From NCBI GenBank assembly GCA_963921795.1, contig OY997658.1, positions 33,431,347 to 33,495,346 of the forward strand: 64,000 nucleotides of DNA, written 5' to 3'. Under the pieces are notes generated by a model. That model saw only the letters and a list, made by a program, of their open reading frames with translations, made no database searches and was not told the origin of the DNA. Below are positions 8,223 through 60,178 of this stretch, piece after piece. The position numbers were made by a program, and so were the translations under genes. Each line of letters opens with the position of its first letter. Position 1 is the first letter of the stretch. This DNA is from Nannobrachium achirus. Its lineage: Eukaryota; Chordata; Actinopteri; Myctophiformes; Myctophidae.

Positions 8223-8452
8223 CAGGGGCATCACAAGGGGGGGGAAAGTGGGACTGACTTACCAGGGCCCAAGGTGGAAGGGCCTTAATTATTTTAGACT
8301 TTATCTATTGAAAAATAACAGATATACAAGCTCACAGCGTGGCACCGAGTGCCGCGCTGCGAGCTTGTAGATTTGCTATTTTTGAAATCCCACAATGTGG
8401 GCCCACAGTGAATCCTTGTACCCAGGGCCCAGAATTTGGTGCGACACCCTTG
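8223..8452 (+). mobile_element. CAGGGGCATCACAAG hAT-like MITE
   Basis: It begins CAGGGGCATCACAAGGGG and ends GGCCCAGAATTTGGTGCGACACCCTTG. It is the same family as 24928-25418 but shorter. No convincing 8-base duplication remains. It carries the palindromic module at 8308-8386. Confidence 0.7.
8308..8386. repeat. Palindromic hairpin module (full)
   Basis: TTGAAAAATAACAGATATACAAGCTC pairs with GAGCTTGTAGATTTGCTATTTTTGAA around a second inner palindrome GGCACCGAGTGCC. Predicted stem is about 35 bases. Confidence 0.85.
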
Positions 8453-8940
8453 CCTCTCCCTCTGCGGCTCGGCAGCTAAACTTGTCAGGAATCGCGAACA
8501 TTTCACGCCAGAGATATCAAATGTTATAGATTTATAAGCAATCGGCATGATAAGAAACATGTAGCCTACATTTGAAGCAGTTTATTCTGGTTGGTTCAGT
8601 TGTTTGTGTAATGGAGAGTAATAGCCTCTAAACAAATCAGTGAAAACGGCTCTGTAGGTCCAGCAGACAGGCGATTTCCTCATTCTGCTGCTGCGACCTT
8701 ATATATTTCTTTGTCGTATTGTTTTAAAAGTTTAAAGGTCTACATATTTTTCCAATGCATATCCAGGCCTTGTTGACGGATTGGACGAGATTTCAAAGCT
8801 CTGGGTCCAAAACGGAATTCGTATTTAATGTGTAAAATCCGCTGTATGTCCATTCAAGTGAATGGTGCGGCTGTGATTCTGGTCGGAGGTCTAGGTGGAG
8901 AGGTGGGGGCACGGCCTCCGTGATTGATCCATTACCATTC

Positions 8941-10004
8941 AATTTAACACTTATTGTTTTACTTTCTGGGACTGTGATAATAAATGTCATACCTCAATTC
9001 TTATGCCAAATACCTTCAGTATGGATATAACTATGGGTTCCATGTAGGCATGTTTAAATGCCTGAATTAAACAGTTGATTCACAACTAATATGATTTCAC
9101 CACGTGACTTTGACTTTAAGCATCCACAAATGAGGGGGCTATTCAAAGAGGTTGAACGCGGTTTGTTCCTGTGCTTCCCTCTATCATCTAACTTGTCAGA
9201 AAAGAAAACCTTGTCCTTTTTTTGCATCACAAAACCTGATGAGCCAGAAGTGGATGGTTGACACATTTAGCTTGTACAAAGTAACCGTAACATGATGTTA
9301 GACAATTAATTAGCAACACAACGCAAGGCTACATTTGGTGCCAGTCATGACTTAACTTAGCAGTGCCTTAGAGTAACAAAGTCCTGATGTCGCTTCCGTT
9401 ATGCCCTGGGTTACATAATTGATTTTCTAAATCTCATACACTTTTTCACGTCATATTAGAGCTGTGTTCCAAAAAAATAGTCTGACGATTCTGTCAGGTA
9501 TTCAGCAACAACAGAGGTGACTGTGTCATTTATGATATTTAGTTGCAATTGATAACATTTGTGTTTGGAAAATAGAGTGAGTTCTGCTGTGGTACCCGGA
9601 AGTAGCATTGGAAACTAACTACAGTAGGAAACCACCTGAGATCTCTTAGATATCATGACATTAGTTAACGCTGTGTGTTATCATTTAGTTTGATGAAACA
9701 ACTGAGAGCTGACAACACTACTCTCTACAGAAAGAACAAATCCAGTGCAACACAACGTTACATCAAGATGTTATACTGTATGTGTGATGGTAGTGTTGTG
9801 ATCCAGACACTGGGTAATGGGAGATGTAAGTCTTTACTCTTTGGTAATTGTAAAGCCTGAGAATTGTACTAGTCACTTTGTGGACAGTGGTTTTACTCTT
9901 TGGATGAATTGGTACCTTTAACCGTCAGTTGATGCTTCATATCCATCAAACATATAATTTTCCAAAAATCTGTCTGTCTGAAACAGCGTTTCTCCTCAGT
10001 GGCT
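8941..10004. other. No gene seen
   Basis: Unique-looking AT-rich sequence; no inverted ends or coding frames stood out. Confidence 0.4.
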
Positions 10005-10027
10005 GGGGGGGGGGGGGGGGGGGGGGG
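10005..10027. repeat. poly(G) run, 23 bases
   Basis: Uninterrupted G tract next to a foldback arm. Confidence 0.95.
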
Positions 10028-10035
10028 TAGCCATT

Positions 10036-11264
10036 AAACGAAACGGGTATTTCTTACATTGATGCTCCTACATATTATCATGCAAGCACCAGTTAAAGTT
10101 ACTTTCCATCCCTCATATACTGTATGCACAGTGCACATCCCATAACCCACACACTGCACATCATTTTGGAGCTCATATCTTTGAACGGGTAAGGGCTAGT
10201 ATAAGTAAAATCGCTGAACTCATTTGTTTGTTTTTGCAAAACGGTTCTTATATAAAGTGTTGTTAAAAGTTTCTATGGAATTGAGGCTGGTAACGGTTAC
10301 TTTATAAATGCACCATTTGCCATTTATTTTTACCATTGTGCAGTTAAAAACCTACTTATAACGCAAGTACTACCTGTCAGGGTTTCCTGCAGAAAAAAAA
10401 AAAAAAACGTTGGCCTGGTGGGAACCGAGGGGGGGGACTTAATTCACTTAATTTTACATCATTTATTCTTATTTTTATCCTGAAAATATAAGATGAGTTG
10501 CTTAACAACAAACACATCCAACAAATCAAAACTTATTTTGATTTTTGATTAATCAATTATCATTTTTGCCCTCAAAATATTAACGAGTTGGTGTGATGAT
10601 GGAAAATACAACTACATTATGCTATCATTATTCACATTTATTCAACATTGTGTTTGGCATCAAAACCAGTTTAGCTACTTTAACCCTGTACATCGGAGAT
10701 TTGAAAATAGCTGATCTACAAGATTCACACTGCTAAACGTGAGCTTGTAGATCAGGTATTGTATTTGTAATTTTCTTTAATCTTGAAATATTGAAATAAA
10801 TATTCCAGTTACTTTTAAGTACCAAGCGCTCTTATTTTGTTTTGAAGTCCACCTACAGGTTAAAAGTAGCTACTCTTATTTTGAAGCCTATAGACCGGGA
10901 GTAACAGGTGATAAGTGATCGCAATCGTCCGATAATGCCTCTATCGGCTTTGATCGGTATCGGCTTTGACGATCTACAAGCTAGATCAGTAATTTCACAA
11001 TATTTATCTGTGGGACTGAATGTAACCTCAGCTTCAACTCCTATAAGTAGAATTGGATACTAAAGGACCTCAGCCTGCAATCTCCTAATGTTTATATGTA
11101 ACTAGCCCTTACCCGTTCAAAGATATGAGCTCTGAAATGATGTGCAGTGTGTGGGTTATGGGATGTGCACTGCACACAGTATATGAGGGATGGAAAGTAA
11201 CTTTAACTGGTGCTTGCATGATAATATGTAGGAGCATCAATGTAAGAAATACCCGTTTTGTTTA
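10036..11264. mobile_element. Foldback element with about 165-base inverted arms
   Basis: The left arm 10036-10201 (AACGGGTATTTCTTACATTG to GAACGGGTAAGGGCTAGT) is repeated inverted at 11098-11264 (ACTAGCCCTTACCCGTTC to CAATGTAAGAAATACCCGTT) with very few differences. The 900-base spacer contains a hairpin module (10701-10768) and a hAT-like GATCGCAATCG stretch near 10918. A poly(G) tract (10005-10027) lies just outside the left arm, and a poly(C) tract (11322-11343) lies 58 bases beyond the right arm. Confidence 0.82.
10701..10768. repeat. Palindromic hairpin module (full, diverged)
   Basis: TTGAAAATAGCTGATCTACAAG on the left and GAGCTTGTAGATCAGGTATT on the right are complementary around a short loop. 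Confidence 0.7.
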
Positions 11265-11321
11265 CTGTGTACCGATCTGCATGATTTTTGGACAACATCT
11301 GTAACAGGGCCTGACAACAGA

Positions 11322-11353
11322 CCCCCCCCCCCCCCCCCCCCCCGCCCACCCGC

Positions 11354-11438
<85 letters not shown>
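11322..11438. repeat. poly(C) run followed by (CA)n
   Basis: 22 C, a short GCCCACCCGCCTG spacer, then 82 bases of CA. Confidence 0.97.
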
Positions 11439-11439
<1 letters not shown>

Positions 11440-12158
11440 CTGGTTAAACATGTTGCCTCATGCTAGATGCAGAATAGATATGCCTCAAGCTAGATGCAGA
11501 ATAGATATAGATACACCATACAAATGCTAATATACAGCATATGATTTGTGAAAGTGACAAACGGGCTTCACAGTTATGTTAGGTGTGTTCATATGCTGAT
11601 GGTGATACGATTTCAGATCAATTGCTCCAGCCACTGAGGAGAAACGCTGTGACAGACACTCACTCAGACAGACAGACAGACACTCAGACAGACAGACATT
11701 TGGAAAATTATATGTTTGATATACAATGTCAATGTTTTGTAAGAAGAATCATTAAATATATAAATGCTGCTACAGTAACACAATAAATAGAAGAATTTAT
11801 GGATTTGACGCTGTGATCGGGGGTATCGGCAGATACTGATTCCAGTTAATCGGTGATCGGTGATCGCAATCGGAGCATCTCTACCCTTAACTCGTCTGTG
11901 GACGAGATCAGAATAGCCTGTCAAAAGAAGTTAAGTTGTCTCATACTTAAATTGGCAGTCCCCCCCCCCCCCCCCCCCCTGCTGAAAACCTGTGTGTGAA
12001 AATGACTTTCGAATATTCCTTTAAAACACCACGTGGATTCAATCCATCCAAACCTATAGATTTTTGAATGTACATTGTTTTTAATATAAAATATTTTATG
12101 CTGTAAAAGAGAACTTAATTCGTTTTACAGCATAGTCCTTGTTCACTACAGCATTAGT
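11439..12158. other. Short tandem repeats and a hAT end
   Basis: GCCTCAAGCTAGATGCAGAATAGATA is duplicated at about 11456-11506, GACAGACA repeats lie at 11656-11697, and GATCGGTGATCGCAATCGGAGCATCTCTA (11852-11882) is the inverted end of a CCGAT-type hAT. Confidence 0.5.
11960..11979. repeat. poly(C) run
   Basis: About 20 consecutive C between unremarkable sequence. Confidence 0.95.
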
Positions 12159-20262: not shown

Positions 20263-20686
20263 CAGGGGTCTTCAATGTTTTCAAGCCAAGGACCCCTTAG
20301 CAGAGAGAGAGAGATGAAGCAGGGACCCCCTCTATATATTGTATAAATGTGTGATGCAGATTTTCATCGATTTCATAAGATAGACTTGTTTGAGCAGCAC
20401 TGTTATCAGTCTATGTTGGATTCATGTTAATGTGTATTTTCAGACATTTAACCACTTGAATCATCCATTTTGTAAACTTGACCTTTCACTATGTACTTGG
20501 TCTGTTCTTTTTTACCTCCACACCGCTGCGAGGCGTTGAGAGCTTGTAGATCGGCTATTTTTTGCTAAAGTTCCCTCAGAATAGGGACGCGAGGGTTCAA
20601 GTTGTTAATTTAAAAGTGATCCTACCACACAAGGATTTGGCGGACCCCCTGTAGTAACTCTGAGGACCCCCTGTTGAAGACCCCTG
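20263..20686. mobile_element. hAT-like MITE, 424 bases, exact 8-base duplication
   Basis: TIR CAGGGGTCTTCAA / TTGAAGACCCCTG; target duplication CTGTAAAG at 20255-20262 and 20687-20694. Contains a half copy of the hairpin module (20528-20571: GAGCTTGTAGATCGGCTATTTT). Confidence 0.9.
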
Positions 20687-21984: not shown

Positions 21985-22788
21985 CCCCAGGGCTCCACTG
22001 GCTGCGTCGCGTTGCTCTGCGTCTTGACGGCGTCATTGACGCAGACACGTTGCCGTCCGACTGGCTCCACTGAACGTGAATGTGTTGATATTTCAATCAA
22101 AGATCATAGGATATTCGCATTATCAACTGTAGTGTTATATGCCTAATTATAATAATTTATGCTGTGTAAAGTGCCGGAAAAATAGCAGATATACAAGCTC
22201 AGTAGCTCACAACATGTCGAGTGCATGAATCTGTCATCATGCTGTTGTGACTGTGTCTGAGCTTGTAGATTGGCTATTTCAGAGAACCTGTTGGCTATTT
22301 TCAGTACACCAGTCCAGCGCAGCCACGATAATGTATAGCCTAAAAATCTGTGTTCAGAGTCAGACTCAGTCACTCACTGCTGGCCTGTTTTTAGGAGGAA
22401 GAATTGAGAAAGTTGTTGCCTGTTGTGAACTTGTGATTAGCCTATATCAAGTGGGAAGACCACTGTAATTACATAAAAAATATGCGAGGAATTTTGGTCA
22501 CCCTTGTGAATGACGTGAATGGATATCCAACAGCAGAAAGGCACGTACGGTAGCTATATACATTTAATATGCAATGCAATTACATTTAATCATAATTTAT
22601 ACATGACTGGACGTTGTGGACGTCGTCAAAAAATTGAACCGGGGCAATTTTTGAGTTTGGACGCCGGCACCAGAGCGTCCGACGTTGACGTTACCGTTGG
22701 CAGTGGAGCTCCCTTCATTGATTAAAACGGGAGCGTTCCCAACGTTGACGTTGACGCGACGCTCGACGCACTCGGTGGAGCCGGGGGG
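21985..22788. mobile_element. Harbinger-like element, 804 bases, TTA duplication
   Basis: Left end CCCCAGGGCTCCACTGGCTG; right end, inverted, CCCCCCGGCTCCACCGAGTG. TTA flanks both ends (21982-21984, 22789-22791), fitting the 3-base TWA target of PIF/Harbinger elements. It contains the hairpin module at 22176-22280. A right-end fragment of the same family lies at 3546-3690. Confidence 0.78.
22176..22280. repeat. Palindromic hairpin module (full, longer loop)
   Basis: GGAAAAATAGCAGATATACAAGCTCA and TGAGCTTGTAGATTGGCTATTTC face each other across about 55 bases. Confidence 0.75.
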
Positions 22789-24927: not shown

Positions 24928-25418
24928 CAGGGGAGTCACAAGGGGGGAAAAAGTGGGATTGAGTTACCAGGGCCCAAGGTGGAGGGGCCTTAATTATTTT
25001 ATACTTTAGTTATTGAAAAATAGCAGATATACAAGCTCACAGCGTGGCACCGAGTCCCGCACTGCAAGCTTGTAGATCTGCTATTTTTGAAAATGTGTGC
25101 AAATCTTTGAATATAATGTATTTTTTAAGCGAACATTTGTTACTAAAATTTTGCTTCTGGGAACATCATATTTTGAGATGGGGTCCGTTGCCAAATACAT
25201 ATCATTTTGGGGGTCCTTCACATGAAAGGTTTTGAGCACCACTGACAATAGAAACACAGGGTTTTCAAAAACCTTTTGAAGGATTTGAAATATTCAAAGA
25301 CTTGTACACATTTCCACGATTTTTCAAAGCTCGCAGCGCAGCACCTGCTATTTTTCAATAGTTAAAGCACGCAGTGAATCCTTGTACCCAGGGCCCAGAA
25401 TTCTTTGCGACACCCCTG
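24928..25418 (+). mobile_element. CAGGGGAGTCACAAG hAT-like MITE, 491 bases, exact 8-base duplication
   Basis: Ends CAGGGGAGTCACAAGG and TTTGCGACACCCCTG; target duplication CATGCAGC at 24920-24927 and 25419-25426. Carries a full hairpin module (25012-25095) and a degenerate one (25320-25368). Confidence 0.9.
25012..25095. repeat. Palindromic hairpin module (full)
   Basis: ATTGAAAAATAGCAGATATACAAGC pairs with GCTTGTAGATCTGCTATTTTTGAAA; centre GGCACCGAGTCCCGC. Confidence 0.85.
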
Positions 25419-38675: not shown

Positions 38676-38760
38676 TCTAGAACAGTATTTGATTGTATGT
38701 ATGACATACATCCGTACATTCAGACATACATACTACGTAATGTATGTATAAATCGCTGTT

Positions 38761-38955
38761 GTCGGGTGGAAACCTTGTATGTCCAGAACTGTTCGTTTTG
38801 TATTCATCATTTGAAAATAGCCGATCTACAAGCACACTTTGTAGATCAGCTATTTTCACTAGTTTTGTGCGACAGTCTTGTATGATGGAGCAGGGCTTTA
38901 CTTTACGAGAAAACTTACACATCTGAAACTTGGAGATACGAGGTTTCTGCCCGAC
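38761..38955. mobile_element. GTCGGGTGGAAACCT MITE carrying a hairpin module
   Basis: Ends GTCGGGTGGAAACCT and AGGTTTCTGCCCGAC are inverted repeats. A second, partly deleted copy begins at 42300 (GTCGGGTGGAAATCTTG) and runs to about 42458. Confidence 0.7.
38809..38864. repeat. Palindromic hairpin module (compact)
   Basis: TGAAAATAGCCGATCTACAAG and CTTTGTAGATCAGCTATTTTCA with a short loop. Confidence 0.85.
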
Positions 38956-39671
38956 AGTGACGAAATGTTTGTCAGTCACCCTCACCCCAAAAAGGTAGAA
39001 CAATCACAGCTCACGCTGCTATGTACATGACCTCACGAAATGGACACCCTGGCCATTTAAGAATGCAGAAATCCCTGGTGAAGTGAAAGCAAAAGTCATG
39101 AAGATTGCAAATGGCAATCAATGGTAAGGTGAAAATTGGTTTGTTGTTATTTTATATTTTGTTTGTATTTTGGTTTGTTATGGCAACGGTTGTGTAATGA
39201 ATGGGCATTTTGTCCTACAGAGAGCAATTGGGTAGAGCACAGAGACTTGATCACATTCAAAGCATAAACACTGTTGTCATTGTAATCATCATCAGCTCCA
39301 CTGTTTGTTAATTGTGACGTATAGGCCTAAACAAGAATAACCACGGGGGGGTGTCATCAATATGTAGTAAACAGCACAGCAGTAATGTTGTGTGAAAGTC
39401 TGCATAAAACTTGAGAAAGTACCTCCTTGTGTCTTCCTTCTTTTTAATTTTAATACATTGCTGCAGGGGTGATCAGTATGTGTGGGAATTTACTACTTTG
39501 TTTTGGAATTAAAGCTTGATTGCCATCATAAACGCCTGTGTGTATGTGTGTATGTGCGTGCTTGTGTGTTCTCCGTCCGTGTGAAATCAACTGCTATGAA
39601 TCACGTTCTTTTCATTATTAATCACATTTAGAACGGGTACACATTTTGTGTATCATTATTTTATGCTTTAA

Positions 39672-39756
39672 CTATTGAAAAATAGCAGATATACAAGCTC
39701 ACAGCGCGGCACCGAGTGCCGCGCTGCGAGCTCGTAGATCTGCTATTTTTGAAAAG
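39672..39756. repeat. Palindromic hairpin module (full, best preserved)
   Basis: ATTGAAAAATAGCAGATATACAAGC and GAGCTCGTAGATCTGCTATTTTTGAA with the inner palindrome GCGCGGCACCGAGTGCCGCGC. No hAT termini were seen around it, so it may stand alone. Confidence 0.9.
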
Positions 39757-40227
39757 TCGTGAACATTAGAATTTTGACCCGATTCTATAAGTGTCTTTTG
39801 AATCCTTCTAATTCTAGGCCTAAATGGGTTAATCACATGACACAACAGGATCTCAGGAATAGATGTGTGTGCTTCTTATGTGCAGACTGGAACTGGACCC
39901 AACTTTCACTTTCTACTAAATGGGCAGGCTTTGCTTTGTGAGCATATGATCCCTGTGTATATACTGTACACAGTGACAAGAGCAGTGTAGCTCTATACAT
40001 TACTGACCCTTGGCCAGGGATGGTTGAGCTTTGCTGTCCTGATGTAGATAATTAATTCAATGACACGGCACCCTACAGTATACCATGCTAAATGCAGCAT
40101 CCGGCTGTTCAGAGTAGACCAGGAATTTGGGGCATTCTCTGAGAATTTTATAGGGAGCCCCCAGCAAAATGTGTTGATGAGTTGAGCTTCAAAATCGGTT
40201 CAACCACTTAAACCCTATGTACATTGG

Positions 40228-41902: not shown

Positions 41903-42293
41903 ATGCGTTCACACTAACGGCGACAAAAGCTACAAAACGTCCCAAACGCAGCCAGCTACTGTACGTTGCTGCCAAGTCGCCATTAAAAGAGTTGCTCAAG
42001 CACCACTGCGTAAATGAAAAGGGTAGGTTAAGGTTTAAATAGCACAGGGAACGGCAAGAAGGAGTTTATCTTCCTTTTACGGAACAGAGCAGGAATTGTG
42101 GGGAGAGGGAAGGGGAGTGGAACTGGGGAAACAAAAACATGTCATTGATTGACGCTTCACTGCGTCATTGGAGCGCTGCCCGTCATGCAGCGACAAGTGT
42201 TGGGCGTCAGTTTGTAGCTTCGTGTCATAATTGGCTTCCATTGTAAAAGACTTGTAGCCTGTCGTTTTGTCGCCGCAAGTGCGAACGAAGCAT
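41903..42293. mobile_element. MITE with ATGCGTTCACACTAACGGCGACAAAA-type ends
   Basis: Left TGCGTTCACACTAACGGCG and inverted right CGCCGCAAGTGCGAACGAAGCAT are imperfect inverted repeats. Interior has CACTGCGT repeats. The superfamily is uncertain. Confidence 0.6.
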
Positions 42294-44189
42294 ATTGTTG
42301 TCGGGTGGAAATCTTGTTTGTACAAAACCTTCAATTTTTTATTATTTTAAAAACAATTTAAAATGGTGAAAATAGCCCGCATCGGGAGGCGTTGCAACAC
42401 TTATTTATCAAGAAGTAGGGCTTTAGTTTACACATTTGAAGCTTGGAGATACGAGCAGGGTTCTCACTACATATCATTCAACTCATTTATTTATTGAGTA
42501 GATGCAGGGAGGGATGCGCAATTGTGCCCAAGTACGCATCTGATTTACTGAACTGATATATCCACCCATGTTGAAAGCCAACTCCATTAACTGCCATCAG
42601 ATTGCGGTGCACATGATGGTGGTGATTAAAAAGGCATTACTCCTTTGAATAATTAATCATTTTTCACTTACTGCCCCAGAGTTTGGTCTTTGTCGACTCG
42701 CAGGCTGAGGCAGTAAGGGATAAATGTATGTCTTTTATGGAGAGTTTTCCGGATCTCATGAGGACATGAACTTGGACATGCCTCTCCTCAGAGGGGGCTC
42801 TCATCTTGTCATGTCTCTTTTTGTAAGAGGTTTATATTCAGAGCAGAGACACAGTTCAGATTAATAGTGTAACTGATGGCATTTAAATCTAAGGTCGAAA
42901 GGAAATCCAAGGTAGGGCTCTGTGCAGTGTCACTTACACTGGAGCCAGCCGTATTGTCTGTCGGTGCGTGTGTATACTAGTAGTAATACACAAAACAAAC
43001 ATACCTACTGGGCTTTTGTTCTGTTGCTAGAGTGATCGCTAGCAACCAGGCACCATTGCATTCTTTGCATATTTACTGCATATACATTTTGTACTTTCTA
43101 TTTTTATTTTCTATTCTATTTTTATTTTGTGTAGCTTTTTAAAAGATTTTTCAGATGAGATAAAGAAGCGAGAAAGGTAGAGGGCTCCCCTGGTCCCCTT
43201 GATGATGTGCTTCAGTAACTACTTTCACCAATCCATATTTTAGGCATGTCATAGGCTAAAAGAAATCAAACGTTATTTTCTTTAATGGCCGATCTACAAG
43301 CTCACAATGTCTCTCATCAGGCTTATTAGGTTCATGAGATGGCCCTGAAGCCTTCTCATTAGGGGCTGAACGATTTTAGAAAAAATTAAGAATAGATTTT
43401 TCCGCTCAATATTAGCCCAAAAGTTTAATTATTACAGTAACATGAGATTGATACTGACAACATAATTTGACTTTTAAAGGAAAATACCAGTGTTATTGCA
43501 TGTTTAGCAGAATGTCTACAAGTCAATGGACAAAGTCAATAACATTGACGTAAAATAAAGGTGACATAAAGTTCACTGTGATGGATAACCTAGAGCATGC
43601 AAGTTTAGTCGTTTATTTGCATACCATACTGAAATGAAAGTCAAGAAAAGGGTAGAAGTATATATTTATTACTTAATCTAGACAGTCAGCTAAACATGTA
43701 AAACTTGTGGTCAAGTTATATTTTTAAGTGCCCTTCACTATCTATGCCGATAATTATGTGAGATTCCACGCTGATGCATGGTAGATAGGCTACGTTCTGT
43801 AGCACCAGAACGTACAGTGCAATCCAGCCATCCCACCGACCAAAAAGGCCCCCACCGCCCCCTCCTCAGCAGAAAAGAACTAGTGCTGCATGGTTAATCG
43901 TTTTCAAACCGAAATCGCGATGTGAAATCTCGCGATTAGCGAATCGCAAAGGCCAAACTTCCCAAGCAATATGGAGACGTTTTAATTTTAGAAATCCCTT
44001 CATAATTGACTAAGCAATGATCAAATCAAACTGTGGTGACTTTCTTTGCTTCCGCGCATCCCCACACCGCTGAAAGTGAAAGTGAATGTGATGGCCGGAG
44101 CCACTGTGCAGGACTCTGCCACAGCGTGGGAACTAGGGGTGCTGCAGGTGTTCCAGCACCCCTTTTCAAGTTTTCATTTTTTTATTTAA

Positions 44190-45796: not shown

Positions 45797-46171
45797 TAGG
45801 CCTGTCACAGTTATTATATAATCGTCTAATCGCAATTATTTGATATAATCGTCATAATCGTTTACTTGTTGAAACATTTTCATATTTTCAAACATTTTCT
45901 AAAATAGTGGAAATAGCAGATCTACAAGCTCACAACGCGTCGCGATCTACAAGCTCGGCTATTTCCACTATCAATGTTCTTTTTAAGTATAAATTTGTCA
46001 AATATGTCGGTCGTTTCTTTGTATATTTAGGTTATGTGTCATATCTATGTGCAACTTCAAAGCCTAAAAGCCAAACAGAAATGTAGTTGTAAACGAGAAA
46101 AAGACAATTATTCGTAATTATTTGAGTGACAATTAATCGTCCTGTAAAATGTCATAATCGTGACAGCCCTA
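45797..46171. mobile_element. hAT-like MITE (TAGGCCTGTCAC...GTGACAGCCCTA), 375 bases
   Basis: Target duplication GCTGTGTT at 45789-45796 and 46172-46179. Interior has ATAATCG repeats and a full hairpin module at 45908-45972. Confidence 0.92.
45908..45972. repeat. Palindromic hairpin module (rearranged centre)
   Basis: AGTGGAAATAGCAGATCTAC on the left and CTCGGCTATTTCCACTAT on the right; the left-arm string GATCTACAAGCTC recurs in the same orientation within the right half. Confidence 0.8.
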
Positions 46172-46727: not shown

Positions 46728-47459
46728 CTAGCAGGGGAAAGCCAGGATGGTGCTCGTTGGGTGTTCTAGGGGTGAGCGGATGATGTGGCCGTACCAGCGC
46801 ACTCGCCGCATTGCTGCGAGACGAGATGCTGGGGGGTGTTGGGTTTGGTCCCTTAAAGTCCGGTTCGTGACATGCTGGCTCCAGCTGATGCCTTCGATTC
46901 TCCTAAGGGCCCTGGTGTCGAATCCGTCCAGCCTGGCCGCCAGGGTGTTGTTCAGCGGCCAGGTTTCAGAGCCGTACAGCAGGACGGAGATGACCGAGGC
47001 ATTATAGACCCTAAGCTTTGTCTCACGCGAGATGTGCCGGTGTCTCCACAACGGTCTCCATAGGGACTGCATTACAGAGGACGCTAGGGCACGGCGCCGG
47101 TCGATCTCAGGTTTGAGGTCGCCGTTATTAGACAATGATGATCGAAGATATTTAAAAGTGGGTACAAAGTGGACAGGGGTGCCGCCAAAGATGAGTGGTG
47201 GTGGGTCAGGTCCATTGCCTACGTGCATAAGCTCGGTTTTTGGCCAGCTTATCTTAAGGCCTAACTTCCTGGCCTCCTCATCGAACACGTGGAGAGCTTC
47301 ACGAAGCTGCTCAGCAGTCTCGCTGAACAGGGTGGTGTCATCCGCGTATTCGAGATCCCTGAGGGTGTAGTCACCTAATGGCACCCCAGGAATCCGCTCA
47401 CAGACTCTTGACATCAGGAGGTCAATGATGCAATTAAAAAGTTCGGAACTCACGATCAT
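46728..47459 (-). pseudogene. Reverse transcriptase C-terminal half of an RTE-like LINE (5' truncated, frameshifted)
   Basis: The 243-residue frame contains the catalytic YADD box at residues 39-42 in DLEYADDTTLFS, then LKISWPKTEL, a YLRSSLSNNGDLKPEIDRR region, TKLRVYNASVISVLLYGSETW and RRVRWYGHIIRS. These are hallmarks of the palm/thumb and C-terminal part of RTE-related non-LTR retrotransposon RTs. The fingers domain and endonuclease are absent, so the copy is 5' truncated near 47445. A frameshift around 46731-46745 ends the frame early; the remaining conserved tail (WKRPRGAPRTRWLD) continues in another frame to about 46555. On the minus strand the element terminates in (AAGT)n at 46521-46550, the short tandem-repeat tail typical of RTE-type elements. 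Confidence 0.85.
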
Positions 47460-48317: not shown

Positions 48318-48638
48318 TAGGGCTGCAACTATTCATTATCTTTTTAGCGATTTTGCTATTGATTTCTGTTTTGATTAATCAAATAATTAAGAAGCACATG
48401 GGGGAGAAATCTTTTTACATTTATTTTCTTTCTCTTTCCTTTTTTATTAACGAATCAACACAAAAACCTTTAATAGAAGGTTCATAATTGACTAAATCAA
48501 TCACCAATTCAGGTCTAAAGGTCACAAGCACAAATAACAGATCAGCTATTTTAGCTATTTTTGAAAATGTGATCAATTATCAATAACTTTTTTAAATAAT
48601 GGATTAAATCAATTAATTAATTATTGATTACAACCCTA
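48318..48638. mobile_element. hAT-like MITE TAGGGCTGCAAC...TTACAACCCTA, 321 bases
   Basis: The ends are diverged inverted repeats, and no 8-base duplication is intact. It starts 70 bases after the first coding exon of NCOA2. It carries a partial hairpin module (48536-48568: ACAGATCAGCTATTTTAGC). Confidence 0.65.
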
Positions 48639-50669: not shown

Positions 50670-51095
50670 TCACTAGTGGTTCTCAAAGTGGGGTCCTGGG
50701 TCCTTGAGGGAGTTCCAGGGGGTCCCCAGATAAATGATAGTTAGGAACCAAATAGAACTTTATGGGTCTGTAACTCGGTGAACAAATGGAACCAAATGGA
50801 CCTGTTCCATTTGTACTCTAGTATTTTAACATTTAATATAAATTGGGGTCCCAGTGATATAAATATAATTAAATGGGTGTCTGTAGCCTAGTGTATTTAG
50901 AAATCCTAGTTCTAAGTTCAAACATTAGCCAAATTGTAAAATAAATATAAGAAATAGGCAAACATTTTGAAAATAGCCGATCTACAAGCTCACAGCGCTC
51001 GAAAACATTGTATTGAGGACTCATTAAACTTTTCTGGGATTTGAATGACCACCTGTGGGTCCCGGGACCCATTACATTGAAAACCTAGTAACATC
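50670..51095. mobile_element. Decayed hAT-like element (CTAGTGGTTCTCAAAG...TTGAAAACCTAGT)
   Basis: Left end ACTAGTGGTTCTCAAAGTGG and diverged inverted right end ACATTGAAAACCTAGTA, related to the CAGTGGTTCTCAA family at 26202. Contains a half hairpin module (50966-51003: TGAAAATAGCCGATCTACAAG). Confidence 0.5.
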
Positions 51096-51123: not shown

Positions 51124-51557
51124 TAGGCCTGTCACAATTATTACATAATCGTCTAATCGCTATTATTTGAGGTAATCGCAATTATTTAGCATAATCGTCA
51201 TAATCGTTTCCATGTTGAGAAATGTTCATATAGTTTCAAACACTTTCAAAACGTAGTGGAAATAGCATATCTAAAAGGTCACAATGCATCGCATCACGAT
51301 GTGTTGTGAGCTTGTAGATTGGCTATTTCCACTATAAATGTATAAAGAATAAAGTTATTAAATATGCCTGTCATTCCTTTGTATATTTAGTTTATTTGTC
51401 ATATCTATTCTGTGCAACTTCAAAGCCAAACAGAAATGTAATTCTTATCCATATGCGCCGGTGTTCAGCGATAAGAACACAATTAAATCGTTAATCGCAA
51501 TCATTTGTGTGACAATGAATCGTCACATAAAATGTCATAATCGTGACAGTAGCCCTA
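51124..51557. mobile_element. Second copy of the TAGGCCTGTCAC hAT-like MITE, 434 bases
   Basis: Target duplication CTCACCTT at 51116-51123 and 51558-51565. It lies in the NCOA2 intron and ends 114 bases before exon 51672-51844. Carries the hairpin at 51252-51338. Confidence 0.92.
51252..51338. repeat. Palindromic hairpin module (full)
   Basis: GTAGTGGAAATAGCATATCTAAAAG and GAGCTTGTAGATTGGCTATTTCCACTA around GCATCGCATCACGATG. Confidence 0.8.
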
Positions 51558-51671: not shown

Positions 51672-51844
51672 CCCCAAGCGGAGCAACGAGAAGCGCAATC
51701 GCGAGCACGAGAACAAATACATCGAGGAGCTGGCCGAGCTGATCTTCGCCAACTTCAACGACATCGACAACTTCAACGTCAAGCCTGACAAATGTGCAAT
51801 CCTTAAGGAAACTGTGAAGCAGATCAGACAGATAAAGGAGCAAG
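51672..51844 (+). CDS. ncoa2: NCOA2 exon encoding the bHLH domain
   Basis: The acceptor TTCTTCACAG ends at 51671, and the donor GTACGG begins at 51845. The 173-base exon continues the frame of 48159-48247. It encodes the basic-helix-loop-helix region: basic part [18 protein letters not shown], loop and second helix containing [20 protein letters not shown]. It ends with the first base of the next codon (phase 1). The sequence is nearly identical to vertebrate NCOA2, and the [12 protein letters not shown] stretch separates it from NCOA1 (LLSANISDID). The V before KPDK is F in human NCOA2 as I remember it. The bHLH-PAS part of p160 proteins mediates dimerisation and binding of secondary partners. 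No later exon (PAS region) is visible up to 64000. A hAT-like element ends 114 bases upstream and a hairpin repeat starts 49 bases downstream. Confidence 0.95.
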
Positions 51845-51892
51845 GTACGGGGAGCGAAATTTATAGCATTGATGCTTATTATTTAATGCTTT

Positions 51893-51955
51893 AACTATTG
51901 AAAAATAGTAGATATACAAGCTCACAACAAGCTTGTAGATCTGCTATTTTTGAAA
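51893..51955. repeat. Palindromic hairpin module (minimal loop)
   Basis: ACTATTGAAAAATAGTAGAT-ATACAAGCTCACAA and CAAGCTTGTAGATCTGCTATTTTTGAA; starts 49 bases after the NCOA2 donor at 51845. Confidence 0.85.
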
Positions 51956-52150
51956 GAAATCTAGATTTTAAAAGCGAACATTTGTAACTCAAATATTTGC
52001 TTCTGGGTGGTCCCTGGAATAACATTTTGAGATGGGGGTCCACGGCCAAATACATGTCATTTTGGGGGTCCTTGACATGAAAAGGTTTAAGAACACTGAT
52101 TTAGAAGACATTTATAGAATCGGGTAAACTTGCAGAAATGTTCATGATTT

Positions 52151-52216
52151 TTCTAAAATGTCAGATCTACAAGCTCGCAGTCGTGCTGTGAGCTTGTATA
52201 TCTGCAATTTTTTAAT
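52151..52216. repeat. Palindromic hairpin module, hit by a hAT insertion beside it
   Basis: CTAAAATGTCAGATCTACAAGCTCGCAG and GTGAGCTTGTATATCTGCAATTTTTTA; the hAT at 52228 entered its right flank. Confidence 0.8.
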
Positions 52217-52227
52217 AATTAAAGCAT

Positions 52228-54003
52228 TAGGGCTGTCTTCGACTCAGGATTTTTGGAGTCGATTGGAGTCGCGGGGGTTAATGCGATTCGTCAACAAATC
52301 GTTTTATACTGTATGTTAAAAAAAAGGGGGGAAAAAAGTTGCTTTAAACCACGTCAACAGAATACAATAAAACATTAAGATGAACATTGTTTTAAGCCTT
52401 GAAAAGATCCACGAACTACCGTGCATATGATATAATGGACATTAATGACGATAAGATTGCGTCCAGCCGTGCGTAATTGTGAATCGTGGAGCAGAGTAGA
52501 AAGACGGAGACGAGAATAATGCATCTCTCTGTCAACACAACTGCGTGTCGTTTATTATTTCCACAGCTTGTATTTTCTCAGAGCGCAGCGCTGCTGTATC
52601 AAAAGAGCTATGTTGCGGATCAAGTCGTCGCTGGTGCGAGACAATAACAAACTTTTCCCCCATTGCTACTTCTCTGCCTGAGATCACACTCAGGCTCAGC
52701 GGCAAGCAGCTAGTGTGTGGCTGCCGCTGCTGCCTCTTGCGCTTGGCTATCTCCAACAAGTAGAATAACAACACGTTGGCGTATTTCCTCTCAAAGTGGT
52801 TAACTTCAAAATAAGAGCTGCCTGTAATATGATTAAGGCAACATTCAAGTCACGTTAACTGGTTTTATTTTGAAGTCTACTTACAAGTAGTAGGAAGTAT
52901 GGACTCTATTGGAAGTACATGACACCAGTCCAGCGCTATACCGCACCGCACCACAGTATTAACTCATTCAGAGCCCCAGACATTAACGGATTATTTCAGT
53001 CATGGACGCCTCCAGTCTGTTCAGTGATGTTTTTGTGTCCTTATAATTGTCACTGTTTTCCTGCCGGAGCTTTCTTATCTCTGCTAACATCTCAGATTCT
53101 GCGTTCACGTTAGCCGCAGCTTCAGTGCTAGCTGCAGCCCCAGCCATCTCCTCTGTTAGCCCAGTTAGCTTTAGCTGCGTTAGCTTTAGCTGCGTTAGCT
53201 TTAGCTGCCTTGTGTTTGGTCTCGTCCCTTCAGTGTTGTCGCTGATTGAACTTTTCCTAGTCAATCTCCCGCGTCTCAGCATTCTTCTGCAGCCATTTCA
53301 GTACTTTTCCTTTGTCAGTTGCTAGTTTTTACTTCACTTTAGGGCTATTTTTAAAGTGGGCTCGGCGGAGCTAGTGATTCACACGTCTGTGTTGCTCATG
53401 ACGTCACCGGAACCGACATTAACGGATTATAATGTCCAAAGTGCCTCCTTCAGGTCCCATTCACTTGCGTTGTCTTATTATGAAGGCCAGAAGTCCACCA
53501 CGCAATCACTTCCGGTCTGACGTCATCGGATCGTGCGCCGGAACCGATCCGTGTCCACGTGGAGTTGTGTAATGGCCGACCGGAGCTTTTATCATTGTGT
53601 AACGTAAGCGAGCATCTGCCTCCATCCTAGCTTCTAAAGTGTAGTTTTGAGATAATGGACATTAAAGATGAGATCCCCCGTCCACCTCAATGTTATGGAT
53701 GGGACTATTTTGTGCTCGTGGAGCCGTGATGATGCGAAATCAGCGACGGATTTCGTCTCCGGACCGCCGGCGATTCTTCTCGGTAATGTACTCGCCGTTA
53801 CAGTAATCTATTACTTTTCCCGAGATATCCCGTGAATGGCACTACAGATACTCGAGTACATTTCGCGAGACATCTCGTGAATGGCACTAGATGAGTTAAC
53901 TGGTAAAATAATATATTTTCGACTCCTCGACTCAAACAATTGCCGTCGATTCCGGGGGCTTAAAACGACTCGTCGATCCGCCGATTTTTAGAAGACAGCC
54001 CTA
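52228..54003 (+). mobile_element. hAT-like element, 1,776 bases, with exact 8-base target duplication
   Basis: The termini are TAGGGCTGTCTTCGACTC on the left and AGAAGACAGCCCTA on the right (inverted). The 8-base duplication TAAAGCAT occurs at 52220-52227 and 54004-54011. It inserted into the flank of a hairpin repeat (52151-52216), since TAAAGCATAAAATAATGG on the right resumes that repeat. Internal sequence carries a nested L1-like ORF1 fragment and no visible transposase. Partial copies lie at 7463-7715 (left end) and 55532-55740 (inverted right end). Confidence 0.88.
52995..53414 (-). mobile_element. L1-like ORF1 fragment nested in the hAT, flanked by a 16-base direct repeat
   Basis: Minus-strand frame 53282 to 52983 gives a 99-residue protein: a basic N-terminus, three QLKLT-type repeats, an alanine-rich stretch and a heptad-like segment EIRKLRQENSDNYKDTKTSL. 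It resembles the N-terminal coiled-coil of fish L1 ORF1 proteins. The frame stops just inside GACATTAACGGATTAT (52979-52994), and the same 16 bases recur at 53415-53430. The insert is thus bounded by what looks like a target duplication. The expected poly(A) or 3' UTR of an L1 is missing, which is odd for a normal retrotransposition. Confidence 0.5.
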
Positions 54004-55531: not shown

Positions 55532-55740
55532 TAGGGCTGTATTGTAAAAATCAACGCATCAACGAGTCAGTCGAAGACCCCGCAGTCGACGGCAATAGTT
55601 TGAGTCAAGCCGTTAGTGGTAATTACTTTAATAGCGGAAGTTACTACTGTGGTGCTGTAAATAGCGCTGGACTGGTATGTCATGTACTTTTAATTGAGTC
55701 CATCTTACTTAAAAATAAAACTAGTTGACGTTACTTAAAA
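55532..55740 (-). mobile_element. Inverted right-end fragment of the same hAT family
   Basis: AGGGCTGTATTGTAAAAATC, AACGAGTCAGTCGA, GTCGACGGCAATAGTTTGAG matches the reverse complement of 53930-54003. No matching opposite end or target duplication was found. Confidence 0.55.
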
Positions 55741-57990
55741 GTTGACTTGATAATATTACAGGAGGCTCTTTTAAGGCTGACACAGGACTGACACAGATAT
55801 CTCCATATATGGCCATTAATTTATTAGTGAATTAATTTTCCCCATTGACTTGAATGGGGAAAATTCAAATGGTAAGACGAAATTAATTAGCGAAATTCGC
55901 GTCACAGCAACCACACATCTTTCTAGTTTTATTTGTACACGGACAGGACTCTTTGTTCACCGCCAACTGCAGATACCTTATTCGCTGTGAAATTCTTTCA
56001 TGGCGATACCGTACCTTATCTTGTACAGTTCAGGGAGGGCACAAAACGGCTGTTTCTTGTTCCCTGATACCCTTTTATGAACCAGATGTAAGCCTTGGCA
56101 CCTTATTTAGAAGCGTTCACACCTAGAGTTGACAGCGCTTGGATCGTTTGGTCTCATCTTTTTCAAAAAGCTCTTTTAGAACTTATCTGCCATAAGTACT
56201 GGTCCAAAGCCATGAAGTTCGGGTTGTAAGGCTGTGGAAATAACTGTTGGTAGTGGAGAACATTTCTCATATGGCCTTAGTTGCCCCCCATGCTTGCAGC
56301 AACATCACTGTGTAAACGATAACATTACTGTGTAACTGATTCTCAGCTTATGGTAGCACTACCGAACGCAGGGTCTTGAAATGCACACATTTAAGTTGAT
56401 AAGCCACACTGACTTGTACTACAGCCCTGGGAAGAAGCACTTTTGCTTTGTGGATGGACTTTGAGAAAGAGGCCTCCTAGGGGCAGCAGTTAATTTATCT
56501 CTGTATGTTCAACTCATGCTGTCTGCATACATTCCCTTAATTGAAATCAGGGTGGATTTGTGTACTTGGAGTGGGGAAAAAACTCACCCACTAAGCCTAG
56601 GCAATGTTTCAAGCTTGTTTGGTCTTAATAGACAATATGGCGGGTAATTGATTTCTTTATAGTGCCCATAAAGTAATGGCATAGCAGGGAATTTTATTGC
56701 TACTTTTTCACTCTGGGCTGCTGGCCTACTAATACTATATTACAGCTCAGCACTGATAGGCTGGGGCCTGTTCTGCTCGGAACTGTAATTGGATCAGAGA
56801 GAAGTTACATTCACCCTGCTAAACACCAACCTTTTAAAATAAAAAAAAGTCAAGTGAGCGGTGCGATCTGTGAGTTAATGAAGCGCCCCGAGAAGCTTGG
56901 CCATTGTGGAATGGGGCGGGACATACGTACATACACACAGACAAAGCCAGATGTAGGAGCGGTCAGCACCGCTCACAACTTGGTGATCCTAACTTTACCC
57001 AGTGTTCTAAATGCAAAAAGGAAAGAAAAAATCATTTAAAATGCCACCAGTTCACAGAACTAACACCGCTTGAAACATCTGGTAGATGTCTGGATGGCGT
57101 AAGTGGCCATTAGTTCTCAGTCCGTGTACCTGGCGTAGGGCTGCAGAAGGACAGTAGCGCCTGGCAGGAGATAGTTGGAGTCACTGAGGGCTGCCACGGT
57201 GCTGAGTGATGGCTTTGTTCTGCGGGGGCAGCTGTGCTGGTTTACTGGGCCCTGCTGGGCCTGCAGAGGCCCTGCTGATGCACACATCATTAATACTGTG
57301 TGAGAGAATGAGAGAGAGAGAGTTGGTGCGTGTGCCTGTGCGGCAGGGCAAAAAAAATGGCATTCGCTTCCGTCCTCACACACATCTGCACCCCCCCCCC
57401 CCCCCCCCCCATCCCCCTACCCCCCAAATAAAAAAAAGAAAGGCAATGGATTTGTTCCCCTTTTTCGGGCCACAGAATTTCCTCACCATATGGTCAGCCG
57501 TCACATGGGCGCAGTGCAACGATCAAATGCGTCCCCCTCCAGTTACTCCGATGGCCCCCTCGTTCCTCCACTCATGATCGTCTTCAAAAGTAGGGCAGCC
57601 CGCACTCTGAACATAAGGCTTCTCTGCACGGCTATTAACCCAATCACTCACATGGAGAAATAGAGAGCATCATTCTGCAGGTACAGGATAGACCGGAGCC
57701 TGCAGTATAGGCTACTCCATATGTTCATTTCAGGGCAAAACAATAACCTAATAAACCGCTACCTCGCTGATAAATGACTGCAGATGAAAGCAATCTGTAA
57801 TGGGATATAGATTGTTCCTCTGACGAGACATACCGAATGCGTTTGTCTTGTATAAACTGGCTTTCAGGTCTATAAGCCTGTGGCTTCTTTGTACATGCTG
57901 TTGTCAATGGTGTAACATTAAACTGTATACCGAAGTGTCGTCTCTTGCTCATCACTCAGCTGTCTAAGTAGCTGGGTAGAAACTGGTCAA
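55741..57990. other. Probable NCOA2 intron, no exon recognised
   Basis: I looked for the next NCOA2 exon (after the bHLH) and did not find it. A C-rich tract at 57390 and AG-rich strings are the only notable features. Confidence 0.4.
57390..57410. repeat. poly(C) run
   Basis: About 20 C followed by further C-rich sequence. Confidence 0.95.
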
Positions 57991-58265
57991 AGATCATCAA
58001 TTTTGTGCACTTGGTGCAAAGTTTTTGATTTTTGGTATGGTGTTATAAGTAAGGTATGGGTATAAGGTTTTCAAAAACCTTCGCAAATAAGTTGGTAATG
58101 GCCTACCAAGTCAACCATATACTGACAAATCTACTATTGAATTCATTGCAAACAGACCACTAGGGGGCGAGCCCAAATTGTTTGCGATGTTTTTTGAAAA
58201 CCTTATACCCATACCTAACACCATACCAAAAATCTAAAATTCTTCACCAAGTGCAGATTTATTAT
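57991..58265. repeat. Inverted repeat with about 80-base arms
   Basis: TTTTTGGTATGGTGTTATAAG, GGTATGGGTATAAGGTTTTCAAA on the left and TTTGAAAACCTTATACCCATACC, AACACCATACCAAAAA on the right; CTAGGGGGCGAG sits near the centre. Confidence 0.8.
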
Positions 58266-58550
58266 GAATTTCTACACATTAAAACCCAGTTTATAGGCAT
58301 TTTCAGCTCCCGGCAGCCATCGTGGACGCCATCTTGAAAATGATGCCTTTCCGGTAGTTATTTTTTCCTGAATTTTTAGTATGTTGTTTATCATACCCAA
58401 TAGTAACAGAATCCATTGAAAAATCTCTTTCATCAATTATTTGGGGTTTGAACCATATAGGCTACTGATGTATCTAATATTTGATTCATTGCAAACAGCA
58501 AGCTCAAAAACATATCTTTAAAAAAAACAAAAAACATCTGCATTACTTAA

Positions 58551-59035
58551 AGTTATACCATGTAACTTTTTTTATAAAACAAATCTTAAAATTGTCCTAA
58601 CTGTTAAATCGCTAAAGTTTTAGAACCCCCACTCTGTTATTTTCAGCTTCTGAAGCCTTCTCTTTATATGTTTTCTATGAGTTGTGAGGGGGGGAGAATT
58701 TCCCGGCAAAATGATGTCATCTCCCACATGATACACTACCGGCCAATCACAGCGCCGATCATACACCACCGGCCAATCACAGCGAGTCTTGCTGTCTCTA
58801 AAGGAAGTAGCTTCCCTCAGCAACTGTGTTTACATTGGTGAAGGAATCTTGCCTGCTACTCCCTCAATCCTGGTCTAAAAATGATGGGAGACGGCTCTAC
58901 GGAATCGTATCGGCGAGGCGGAGGTGCTCGCGACGGCCGCGGGTGGCCGGTGGTCTGCGGTGGTCTGCGGCGACTCCGGCCGAAAAAAGCAATACCGCTA
59001 CTGACCACTAGTTGAGCAGCTTCCACAGTACAGCT
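58551..59035 (-). mobile_element. Inverted copy of the TTAA-flanked MITE, 485 bases
   Basis: AGTTATACCATGTAAC at the left and TTCCACAGTACAGCT at the right, TTAA at 58547-58550 and 59036-59039. Its GGCCAATCACAGCG segment is duplicated (58741 and 58771). Confidence 0.82.
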
Positions 59036-60114
59036 TTAATTTACAAGAGGTCTACACAATTAGAGAATTTAAGTTTTGTTATTTTGATTGACGATCTCTC
59101 CTATTGGTACCACAAAATCTTTATCCAACAATAACAAAATATACTAGGTTTTGTGTCTGAGAGGCTAAATCTCCGTAGCTCAGATGTCGAATAAATAATG
59201 GACCCAGATACGAAAAAGATTGAAAACCACTGACTTAGAAAGGTTAGGATCTGGATTGGTTTAGGTAAGGGTTAGAATTCCATTCTGGGGCAAACATTAT
59301 GCCTAGTTCGGATTACTCAGAAATGATAAACCAGCTCCTATCTGGACTCAGGAATTGTTTACCCAGTAGAAGAAGCTAATGTTCTCCTTCATTCCATAAT
59401 GGCTCTTTTTTTTTGTTGGTAGATTGACAATGCCATCTATCCCATGACTGGAACCAGCGTGGCAGCTGCATGCTCCAACTCACTTGCACTCATTTACCGC
59501 CACCTTTCACCCCATCGGTTGCTAAGTGCCTGGGTTTACACCATGGCAACGTGTTTCGAATGCTTTGTGACAGTAGAGAGAGCCTTGTTAAAAGGTCTGG
59601 CTCACAAGTGACCTGTTTAAAGCACACAGGACTGTTTTAAAAGAGAAAGGGGAAAATCCTTTAACAGTGTATAAGAGTGTTTTTGTTGCCACTCATGAGA
59701 TCAGTGTTGCATCGGCCTTGCGTGGTTGAATAATTGAGCTGTAGTAGGCCATTGTTGTCATGTGTACTGCCGTCCTTGAGTGGTGCCTAACCGCTCCAAC
59801 ATTTGACAGAGTGTGTATGTCTGTCCGTCAGGCACGTGCACACATAGACATCAAAGGGGGCTGGAGCCCCTGCCCTTTTATCTGTCTGTAAAAAGTGCCC
59901 TCTCCAGACCATGAATGCAGTTTTTACTAAGGTGAAAGAAATGCAAATGGCCATACCTGAAGGCAGCATTCAAGAGAATTCCCTTTTACAAAGTCTCCTG
60001 AACTTGAATGCAGCGTCTTATGTTGAAAGGATGTCCCTCTCTGTGTAGAAATCCATGCCGTTACGCCACATCTCCAGTATAGACTTGATTATGCTTAGTT
60101 TAGTGTGGTATCAC

Positions 60115-60178
60115 ACACTGAAAATAGCCGACCTCCAAGCTCACAACGCGTTGAGCTTGGAGGTCTGGTATTTTCGAT
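60115..60178. repeat. Palindromic hairpin module (full)
   Basis: ACTGAAAATAGCCGACCTCC-AAGCTCACAACGCG and TTGAGCTTGGAGGTCTGGTATTTTCG. The GACCTCC/GGAGGTC changes are compensatory between arms relative to GATCTAC/GTAGATC. Confidence 0.85.

What the first reader, a model, noticed from the sequence alone, without database searches (positions are those of the whole stretch)
8308..60178. High-copy palindromic hairpin module embedded in several unrelated transposon families
Seen: about 13 full copies (8308, 10701, 22176, 25012, 33634, 38809, 39672, 40228, 45908, 51252, 51893, 52151, 60115) and about seven partial ones (20528, 23931, 25320, 42370, 43285, 48536, 50966) share the arm TTGAAAATAGC-GATCTACAAGCTCACA and its complement. 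Copies lie inside at least four element families with different terminal repeats, and also outside any. Inference: either this is an independently mobile short palindrome that prefers transposons, or it is a functional part (replication, transposase or RNA-structure signal) exchanged among elements.
Basis: partly seen in the sequence, partly recalled or inferred. Interest (0 to 1): 0.78.

Follow-up and report, generated by a model that had tools for sequence, protein, structure and literature searches.

The report
Shared hairpin inside many fish transposons
A fish genome carries an estimated few hundred thousand copies of one roughly 85-letter DNA hairpin, sitting inside several different families of small transposons and keeping its two arms matched as it changes, which suggests that the hairpin itself may have helped these transposons to spread.

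Summary
The window lies in a 1.66-Gb fish-like genome in which the exact 16-mer GATCTACAAGCTCACA occurs 158,789 times and the pattern read backwards 0 times. A covariance model finds 11 full hairpins in the window and 59 in 200 kb elsewhere, about 0.3-0.67 million genome-wide by extrapolation. The unit is an 83-89 bp near-perfect palindrome inside short protein-less elements with unlike ends, several clearly hAT (8-bp duplications). Within a family it sits at one place; copies lacking it mostly show deletions. Four of 17 such K copies and the query have similar junctions, so an empty site is not excluded. Between families the arms change together: 27 of 39 pairs with double changes against 14.3 shuffled. 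In family J the half-sites have 1 change in 576 bases against 26 expected; family K does not show this. Best reading: an old foldback core carried by hAT transposition and passed between families, probably kept by selection for the hairpin. Independent mobility has little support. Several decisive genome searches did not complete.

The parts
8303..8391 (.). full palindrome copy, A type, inside an E-type hAT copy (about 8225-8452)
   Evidence: 74.5 bits
10695..10771 (.). full palindrome copy inside element C
   Evidence: 44.2 bits
10035..11264 (.). element C: long terminal inverted repeats (103 + 72 bp blocks reported), probable TA duplication; superfamily not settled
   Evidence: I3, I7
20263..20686 (.). 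hAT1-family element, TIR CAGGGGTCTTCAA, exact 8-bp duplication CTGTAAAG; half palindrome at 20535-20562
22170..22289 (.). full palindrome copy with enlarged inner arms
   Evidence: 39.7 bits
24928..25418 (.). E/A-family hAT element, exact 8-bp duplication CATGCAGC; one full palindrome and one shortened palindrome in opposite terminal repeats
25008..25096 (.). full palindrome copy, A type
   Evidence: 69.9 bits
33635..33691 (.). degenerate copy, one good arm
   Evidence: not found
38760..38956 (.). H-family element (TIR ..TGTCGGGTGGAAACC), palindrome 38805-38865 with short inner part
39670..39758 (.). full palindrome copy at the truncated end of an A element (39655-39804)
   Evidence: 77.7 bits
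40228..40276 (.). degenerate copy; right flank related to element A
42290..42470 (.). second H-type copy with a palindrome remnant
   Evidence: by eye
45797..46171 (.). B-family hAT element, TIR TAGGGCTGTCAC, exact 8-bp duplication GCTGTGTT; palindrome 45901-45974 with part of its right arm inverted
48318..48638 (.). probable hAT element (TAGGGCTGCAAC / TAGGGTTGTAAT), duplication matches at 6 of 8 bases; possible palindrome remnant near 48539 (5.8 bits)
   Evidence: by eye
50966..50998 (+). single arm inside a CTAGTGGTTCTCAA-type hAT-like element
51124..51557 (.). second B-family hAT element, exact 8-bp duplication CTCACCTT; full palindrome 51250-51338
   Evidence: 80.1 bits; duplication read by eye
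51884..52229 (.). element A with a palindrome in each terminal repeat (51893-51959 and 52146-52220); its right end is split by hAT element D
52228..54003 (.). hAT element D, exact 8-bp duplication TAAAGCAT, inserted in the right end of element A; no palindrome found in it
59829..60245 (.). probable Z-family hAT element, ends CAGGCACGTGCA / CAGGGACGTGCA, duplication matches at 7 of 8 bases; full palindrome 60112-60183
400..486 (.). decayed palindrome whose outer arms TCGCTTGCCAAAAAT / ATTTTTGGCAAGCGA extend beyond the core

Best explanation
The module is the centre of an old inverted-repeat (foldback) core that lies inside many families of short, protein-less transposons, several of them clearly hAT elements. 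SHOWN: carriers with hAT-type ends and 8-bp target duplications; a fixed place of the palindrome in each family; loss of parts of it in many copies; arms that differ between families in a matched way. INFERRED: the copies spread because hAT transposases move the carrier by its ends, and the palindrome rides along. INFERRED: the core was passed from family to family when copies nested or recombined, giving the same core new ends. INFERRED, weakest step (about 0.4 on its own): the hairpin with its conserved 16-bp half-sites helps the carrier to multiply, for example as a paired binding site or a DNA or RNA hairpin, so that lineages with an intact hairpin founded the large families.
For: A scan blind to the palindrome for exact 8-bp duplications plus inverted ends found 18 elements in 264 kb (0 in each of 3 simulated controls); 11 hold the palindrome; of the 14 shorter than 1.2 kb 8 hold it, 2.34 expected at random places (binomial about 0.0007). 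8-bp duplications in families J and K read by eye. Of 201 paired-flank comparisons from 56 query sites (not independent) 188 have the palindrome between the flanks and 13, at six places, do not; on reading, five of the six places keep a shortened or decayed palindrome and one (L027:2729) does not. 26 copies: 84.2% of cells paired against 33-40% when slid by 1-3 columns; 27 of 39 pairs with a double change against 14.3, 0 of 500 shuffles as high. Half-sites in 18 dispersed J copies: 1 change of 576 bases, flanks of the same copies 216 of 4752. The motif TTTAACCACTTGAACCC lies near the palindrome in 25 of its 51 hits, and 25 of 25 point towards it, so the shared core is larger than the palindrome.
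Against: K family: half-sites 3 changes of 160 bases (six left and four right sites) against 21 of 750 in the flank by which the copies were found, so no extra conservation there; two further gap-free left sites (L067, L069) were set aside as not homologous, one (L071) as internally deleted and one copy (L076) for gaps. A family, found by a flank: 22 of 341 against 66 of 624, a much weaker effect, two of the 11 copies being the same rearranged array read twice from overlapping loci. The J query contained the palindrome; the blind repeat did not complete. 9 of 20 A copies have lost part of the palindrome. Four of 17 P-less or shortened K copies (L029, L030, L037, L038) and the query keep both outer flanks with similar junctions, as an empty site might. 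Transfer between families was not caught in the act. No transposase and no expression data were tested. 7 of the 18 elements have no palindrome.
Confidence: 0.55

Rival explanations
1. An independently mobile palindrome (a eukaryotic counterpart of bacterial REPINs) that inserted once into the founder of each family.
For: Families with unlike flanks share only the palindrome and a short motif. Near-perfect palindromes occur with no both-flank partner in the sample. Four of 17 K copies and the query lack the palindrome but keep both outer flanks with similar junctions.
Against: By eye no duplication at its own borders; outer borders differ between families yet stay paired. Most P-less or shortened K copies have different breakpoints, seven of 17 keep part of a half-site and L032 keeps part of an outer arm. 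The shared motif outside the palindrome argues for a larger unit.
Confidence: 0.2
2. One ancestral hAT element had the core; families are its descendants with fast-changing ends, so no transfer was needed.
For: J and hAT1 have similar ends; A-F, hAT1-L014c, H-L014a and M-L027b flanks align. The outward motif is shared by several families.
Against: TAGGG-type and CAG-type hAT ends and the H and C elements are unlike each other; of 946 flank comparisons 11 reach z > 6, nearly all between close relatives, within one element or at a nested K end.
Confidence: 0.25
3. The arms match only because hairpin-templated repair copies one arm onto the other; no selection is needed.
For: Matched changes also in the outer and inner arms, where sequence is free to vary. 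Copy 45908 has an inverted inner arm, as a template switch would give.
Against: In 18 young J copies 24 single-arm changes and 0 double changes; within-copy arm mismatch 3.5% against 3.2% between copies, so no correction in place on that time scale. Element A keeps the same arm mismatches in many copies.
Confidence: 0.2
4. The hairpin is an RNA element, for example a transposon-derived microRNA or small-RNA precursor.
For: A conserved stretch of about 16-22 bases in each arm with structure-only conservation outside it; microRNAs from short inverted-repeat transposons are known in human (PMC1784062, search listing and start of abstract only).
Against: No Rfam match in the window at gathering scores. 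Mismatches within 62 two-arm copies show no strand bias: 34 G-T against 46 A-C types, 117 others. No expression data.
Confidence: 0.12

Closest known systems
Non-autonomous hAT elements / MITEs (hAT superfamily)
   Same: 8-bp target duplications, CAG- or TAGGG-type inverted ends, short, high copy
   Different: Several families share one internal palindrome that varies by matched changes
Foldback elements and the Angel-type inverted repeats reported in teleosts and in the medaka hAT element Tol2 (recalled; no paper on them was read here, and the one passage opened, PMC2874221, did not cover it)
   Same: Internal or whole-element inverted repeat in a fish hAT setting
   Different: Here the palindrome is only 83-89 bp, has conserved half-sites and recurs in several families; sequence identity with Angel was not tested
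REPINs and other bacterial palindromic repeats (PMC3116915, search listing and start of abstract)
   Same: Short near-palindrome in very high copy
   Different: Not bacterial; no partner enzyme was searched for; carried inside TIR transposons at fixed places
Made1 / mir-548 (PMC1784062, search listing and start of abstract)
   Same: Short inverted-repeat transposon forming a hairpin
   Different: No evidence of transcription or processing here; several carrier families instead of one

Membership tests
hAT superfamily, non-autonomous (the carriers) | 8-bp target site duplication | tested here: met
   18 exact cases in 264 kb, 0 in 3 controls, 11 with the palindrome, two of the 11 (in L018) nested readings with non-hAT ends; further cases by eye in J and K. 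H undetermined; C looks like TA.
hAT superfamily, non-autonomous (the carriers) | short inverted ends of CAG..CTG or TAGGG..CCCTA type | tested here: met
   families J, hAT1, E/A, B, K, M; not met for H and C
hAT superfamily, non-autonomous (the carriers) | mobilised by a hAT transposase | not tested
   a transposase search of the genome was planned but never sent
MITE (the palindrome itself as a stand-alone element) | own target duplication at its borders | tested here: inconclusive
   none seen by eye at the borders of two-arm copies; no automatic scan at those borders
MITE (the palindrome itself as a stand-alone element) | empty sites in related sequence | tested here: inconclusive
   one family tested: 17 P-less or shortened K copies, mostly different breakpoints, but four and the query with similar junctions and both flanks
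REPIN-like element | partner HUH/RAYT-type enzyme | not tested
   no search made
Rfam RNA family | match at gathering score | tested here: not met
   0 matches in the window
microRNA precursor | small-RNA reads with fixed ends | not testable with these tools
   no RNA data held

The most novel reading that the evidence does not exclude
The palindrome is a trans-family amplification signal: a hairpin with a fixed pair of 16-bp half-sites, read as DNA or RNA by a host or element factor, that hAT carriers must keep to multiply well in this fish, so that otherwise unrelated transposon families compete for the same part and exchange it.
Probability: 0.25. Interest if true: 0.88.

Novelty: new variant of a known kind. 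Interest (0 to 1): 0.63.

Why it matters
Non-autonomous transposons are usually thought to need only their ends. A shared internal hairpin that stays paired through matched changes in several families, at several hundred thousand copies, would mean that an interior part helps to decide which elements succeed, and would help to explain how DNA transposons enlarged this genome. It also gives a ready test: remove or mismatch the hairpin and measure mobility. As a practical point, the palindrome is often partly deleted after insertion and elements often break off at it.

Tried and rejected
Helitron reading (hairpin plus CTRR end): one copy reads CTAG after the hairpin, the others I looked at do not, so dropped (by eye). 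Known RNA families: no Rfam match in the window. Exact arm patterns in the viral and prokaryote contig collections: 0 hits. Arm 12-13-mers in the held paper library: 3 papers, unrelated by their titles and abstracts. Literature on shared palindromic cores in fish hAT elements (listings): nothing that describes this; this is a statement about those searches only. Fuzzy-string scan: too weak, replaced by profile searches. A permissive clustering of outward flanks joined 118 of 181 arms in one group and was not used; weak TIR/duplication pairs are no better than the controls (best control scores 12.5 and 14), so only exact cases or cases with further support are called hAT. Strand-bias test for an RNA role: no bias.
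Full report
What was checked. A profile of single arms has a row at all 20 listed places, 17 of them strong, and three weaker extra ones. The covariance model built from 26 copies finds 11 full hairpins in the window. The genome search, when it answered, placed the window at C21:33,431,347-33,495,346 of a 1,658,514,493-base assembly of 564 contigs and counted 80,229 + 78,560 exact matches of GATCTACAAGCTCACA, with 0 + 0 for the same pattern read backwards. In 20 stretches of 10 kb taken at preset round positions on 15 contigs there are 91 arm sites and 59 distinct hairpin places at E <= 0.01 (two stretches of the 20 have no arm site and three have no hairpin). That extrapolates to about 0.49 million hairpins (0.31-0.67 million from the scatter between stretches) and about 0.75 million arm sites (0.52-0.99 million). 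The reversed-sequence control printed nothing and is not used. The arm profile was seeded from window copies, and 16 of the 26 rows behind the model come from these same stretches (7 more from L001-L008, 3 from the window), so the model's count is not independent of its training; the exact 16-mer count is.

Organism. Not given. Contigs of 53-90 Mb, 1.66 Gb and the many hAT elements fit an anchovy: E. encrasicolus is reported with a 1.4-Gb assembly on 24 chromosomes, k-mer size estimates of 1.47-1.72 Gb, DNA transposons 16% of the genome and hAT 39.5% of those (PMC13403563, passages; no occurrence of palindrom or MITE there). This is a guess from size and repeat content, not a test.

Anatomy. 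The common unit is an 83-89 bp near-perfect palindrome. The two half-sites (about GATCTACAAGCTCACA) are nearly constant; the outer arms and the inner arms differ between families but stay paired: for example TTTGCC/GGCAAA, CTAGTG/CACTAG, TTGTG/CACAA, AGAAGC/GCTTCT outside, and GCCTCGC/GCGAGGC or GCATCGC/GCGATGC inside. On 26 copies chosen to represent different contexts (of 62 two-arm copies measured), 39 pairs: 84.2% of cells pair, 33-40% when slid; 27 pairs have double changes, shuffled mean 14.3; covariation score 0.226 against 0.120; 0 of 500 shuffles reach the observed value on any of the five measures. The alignment contains relatives (three J, two or three hAT1 and two M copies), so the shuffles overstate the case; the slid controls keep relatedness. 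RNAalifold, run on 22 of these 26 copies, gives 10 of 16 predicted pairs with double changes.

Carriers. In a scan that did not use the palindrome, exact 8-bp duplications next to inverted ends (at least 11 of 14) gave 18 elements in 264 kb and none in three simulated controls; 11 contain the palindrome and 7 do not. Two of the 11 (in L018) are nested readings with non-hAT ends. Of the 14 shorter than 1.2 kb, 8 contain it against 2.34 expected. Families read from alignments or sequence: J (CAGTGGTTCTCAACC, 442 bp), hAT1 (CAGGGGTCTTCAAC), E/A (CAGGGGTGTCGC, palindrome in each long terminal repeat), B (TAGGGCTGTCACGA), K (TAGGGATGGGACGATA), M (CAGTGGTGGAAAAAAGTA), Z (CAGGSACGTGCA, probable), H (TGTCGGGTGGAAACC, class unknown) and C (long terminal repeats, probably TA).

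Mobility. Of 132 sites in 288 kb (L006 and L007 overlap by 0.9 kb and L003 and L004 are near-identical), 56 fall in 13 clusters by both flanks and 76 stand alone at this sample size. Of 201 paired-flank comparisons from 56 query sites 188 hold the palindrome at the same place and 13, at six places, do not (recounted). Read by eye, five of the six places keep a shortened or decayed palindrome (L018:6812, L013:5017, W:25317, L021:3898, L011:9391) and one, L027:2729 of family K, keeps no half-site. I used that K copy as query (45 matches, 40 scored of 2,262 candidates) and fetched 20. Of the 17 that match the query across the junction, seven keep part of a half-site (L031, L033, L034, L036, L039, L040, L044), L032 keeps part of an outer arm, and nine keep no half-site. 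Breakpoints differ in most; L036 and L039 are alike and L031 is close to them. Four (L029, L030, L037, L038) and the query keep both outer flanks with similar though not identical junctions near CAAATGTC/TTTTTTGGCAAATG. I read the set as repeated deletions, some perhaps shared by a subfamily, because L032 shares the shortened left flank of L030, L037 and L038 and still has an arm remnant; an old empty site is not excluded. Ten K copies were fetched for their left flank, three of them seen before: nine keep at least part of the palindrome (L067 only an outer arm) and L069 stops before it; L067, L071 and L073 break off inside or just after it, though copies were picked there partly for lacking a match on the right. 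Of 20 A copies found by their inner flank 9 have lost part of it. So the palindrome is unstable after insertion, yet the typical member of each family was founded with it.

Conservation. J was collected with a query that includes the palindrome (40 scored of 3,271; 22 of the 40 are near-identical or duplicated copies, mostly at chromosome ends, and were left aside). The 18 fetched dispersed copies all have the palindrome. Half-sites: 1 change of 576; flanks (left of it and 150 bp to the right) 216 of 4,752; expected 26.2; Fisher 2.7e-10; singletons only 1 against 16.8 expected, 1.6e-6; without CG/TG/CA sites 1 of 270 against 124 of 3,350, 6e-4. The left 16 bp of the element have 11 of 283 changes and the right 16 bp 38 of 287, the latter swollen by truncated copies. 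The query should not favour the half-sites over the rest of its own span, but the blind repeat did not complete. In K, found by flank, half-sites have 3 of 160 and flanks 21 of 750: no effect. In A the effect is weak: 22 of 341 against 66 of 624, Fisher 0.02. I therefore treat strong conservation as shown for J only.

Arm correction. J copies have 24 single-arm changes and no double change, and arm mismatch (3.5%) is about the divergence between copies (3.2%). So copies do not mend their arms in place on that time scale; matched changes belong to founders. Copy 45908, with part of one arm inverted, suggests that arm rewriting can happen.

Shared core beyond the palindrome. The motif TTTAACCACTTGAACCCTATGTACAT has 51 hits in the sample at a permissive threshold; 25 lie within 250 bp of a palindrome (23% of bases do; binomial 4e-5) and all 25 point towards it. 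The eight seeds of the motif come from this same sample, so the figures are somewhat inflated. Otherwise flanks of different families do not align, apart from relatives.

Other genomes. One 99-aa conceptual protein on a 695-bp ENA contig is 44% identical over 67% of a frame across the window's H element, and its residues fit a translated complete palindrome (by eye; the DNA was not seen; source organism unknown). Exact arm patterns had no hit in IMG/VR or in the prokaryote collection.

Verdict. The carriers are ordinary hAT-type elements; the shared, paired core at several hundred thousand copies is unusual. I rate it a new variant of a known kind, with the function of the hairpin open.

Noticed in passing
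window 2126-2723 and 62171-62853: A 96%-identical inverted repeat 60 kb apart, each side with 111-bp tandem units; two copies of one repeat or the ends of a large element.
   Followed up: no
window 62892-63827 +: Open frame of 311 aa with replication protein A OB and C-terminal domains right beside that repeat; possibly part of a transposon.
   Followed up: partly
window 46728-47459 -: Reverse-transcriptase fragment with DUF6451, probably a LINE remnant.
   Followed up: no
window about 51690-51845 +: Reads like the bHLH exon of a nuclear receptor coactivator gene (by eye, recalled; the one database check failed on frame).
   Followed up: no
L006:2156-2742 (G000 contig C1, near 144 kb): Tandem array of 31- and 52-bp units made of half a palindrome plus a piece of the E element: the module has seeded a minisatellite.
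   Followed up: partly
G000 ends of C1, C2, C3, C4, C6, C14, C23: J copies 99-100% identical repeated near chromosome ends, pointing to shared subtelomeric duplications.
   Followed up: no
window 45901-45974: Palindrome with the inner part of its right arm inverted, as if a template switch had rewritten it.
   Followed up: no
L008:1497-1562: Palindrome whose arms extend about 36 bp further outward at 97% (63-base arms in all, two gaps), the longest measured.
   Followed up: no
window 6380, 15939, 23502, 24349, 27977, 36624: Very long (128-185 bp), 98-100% matching CA/GT repeats.
   Followed up: no
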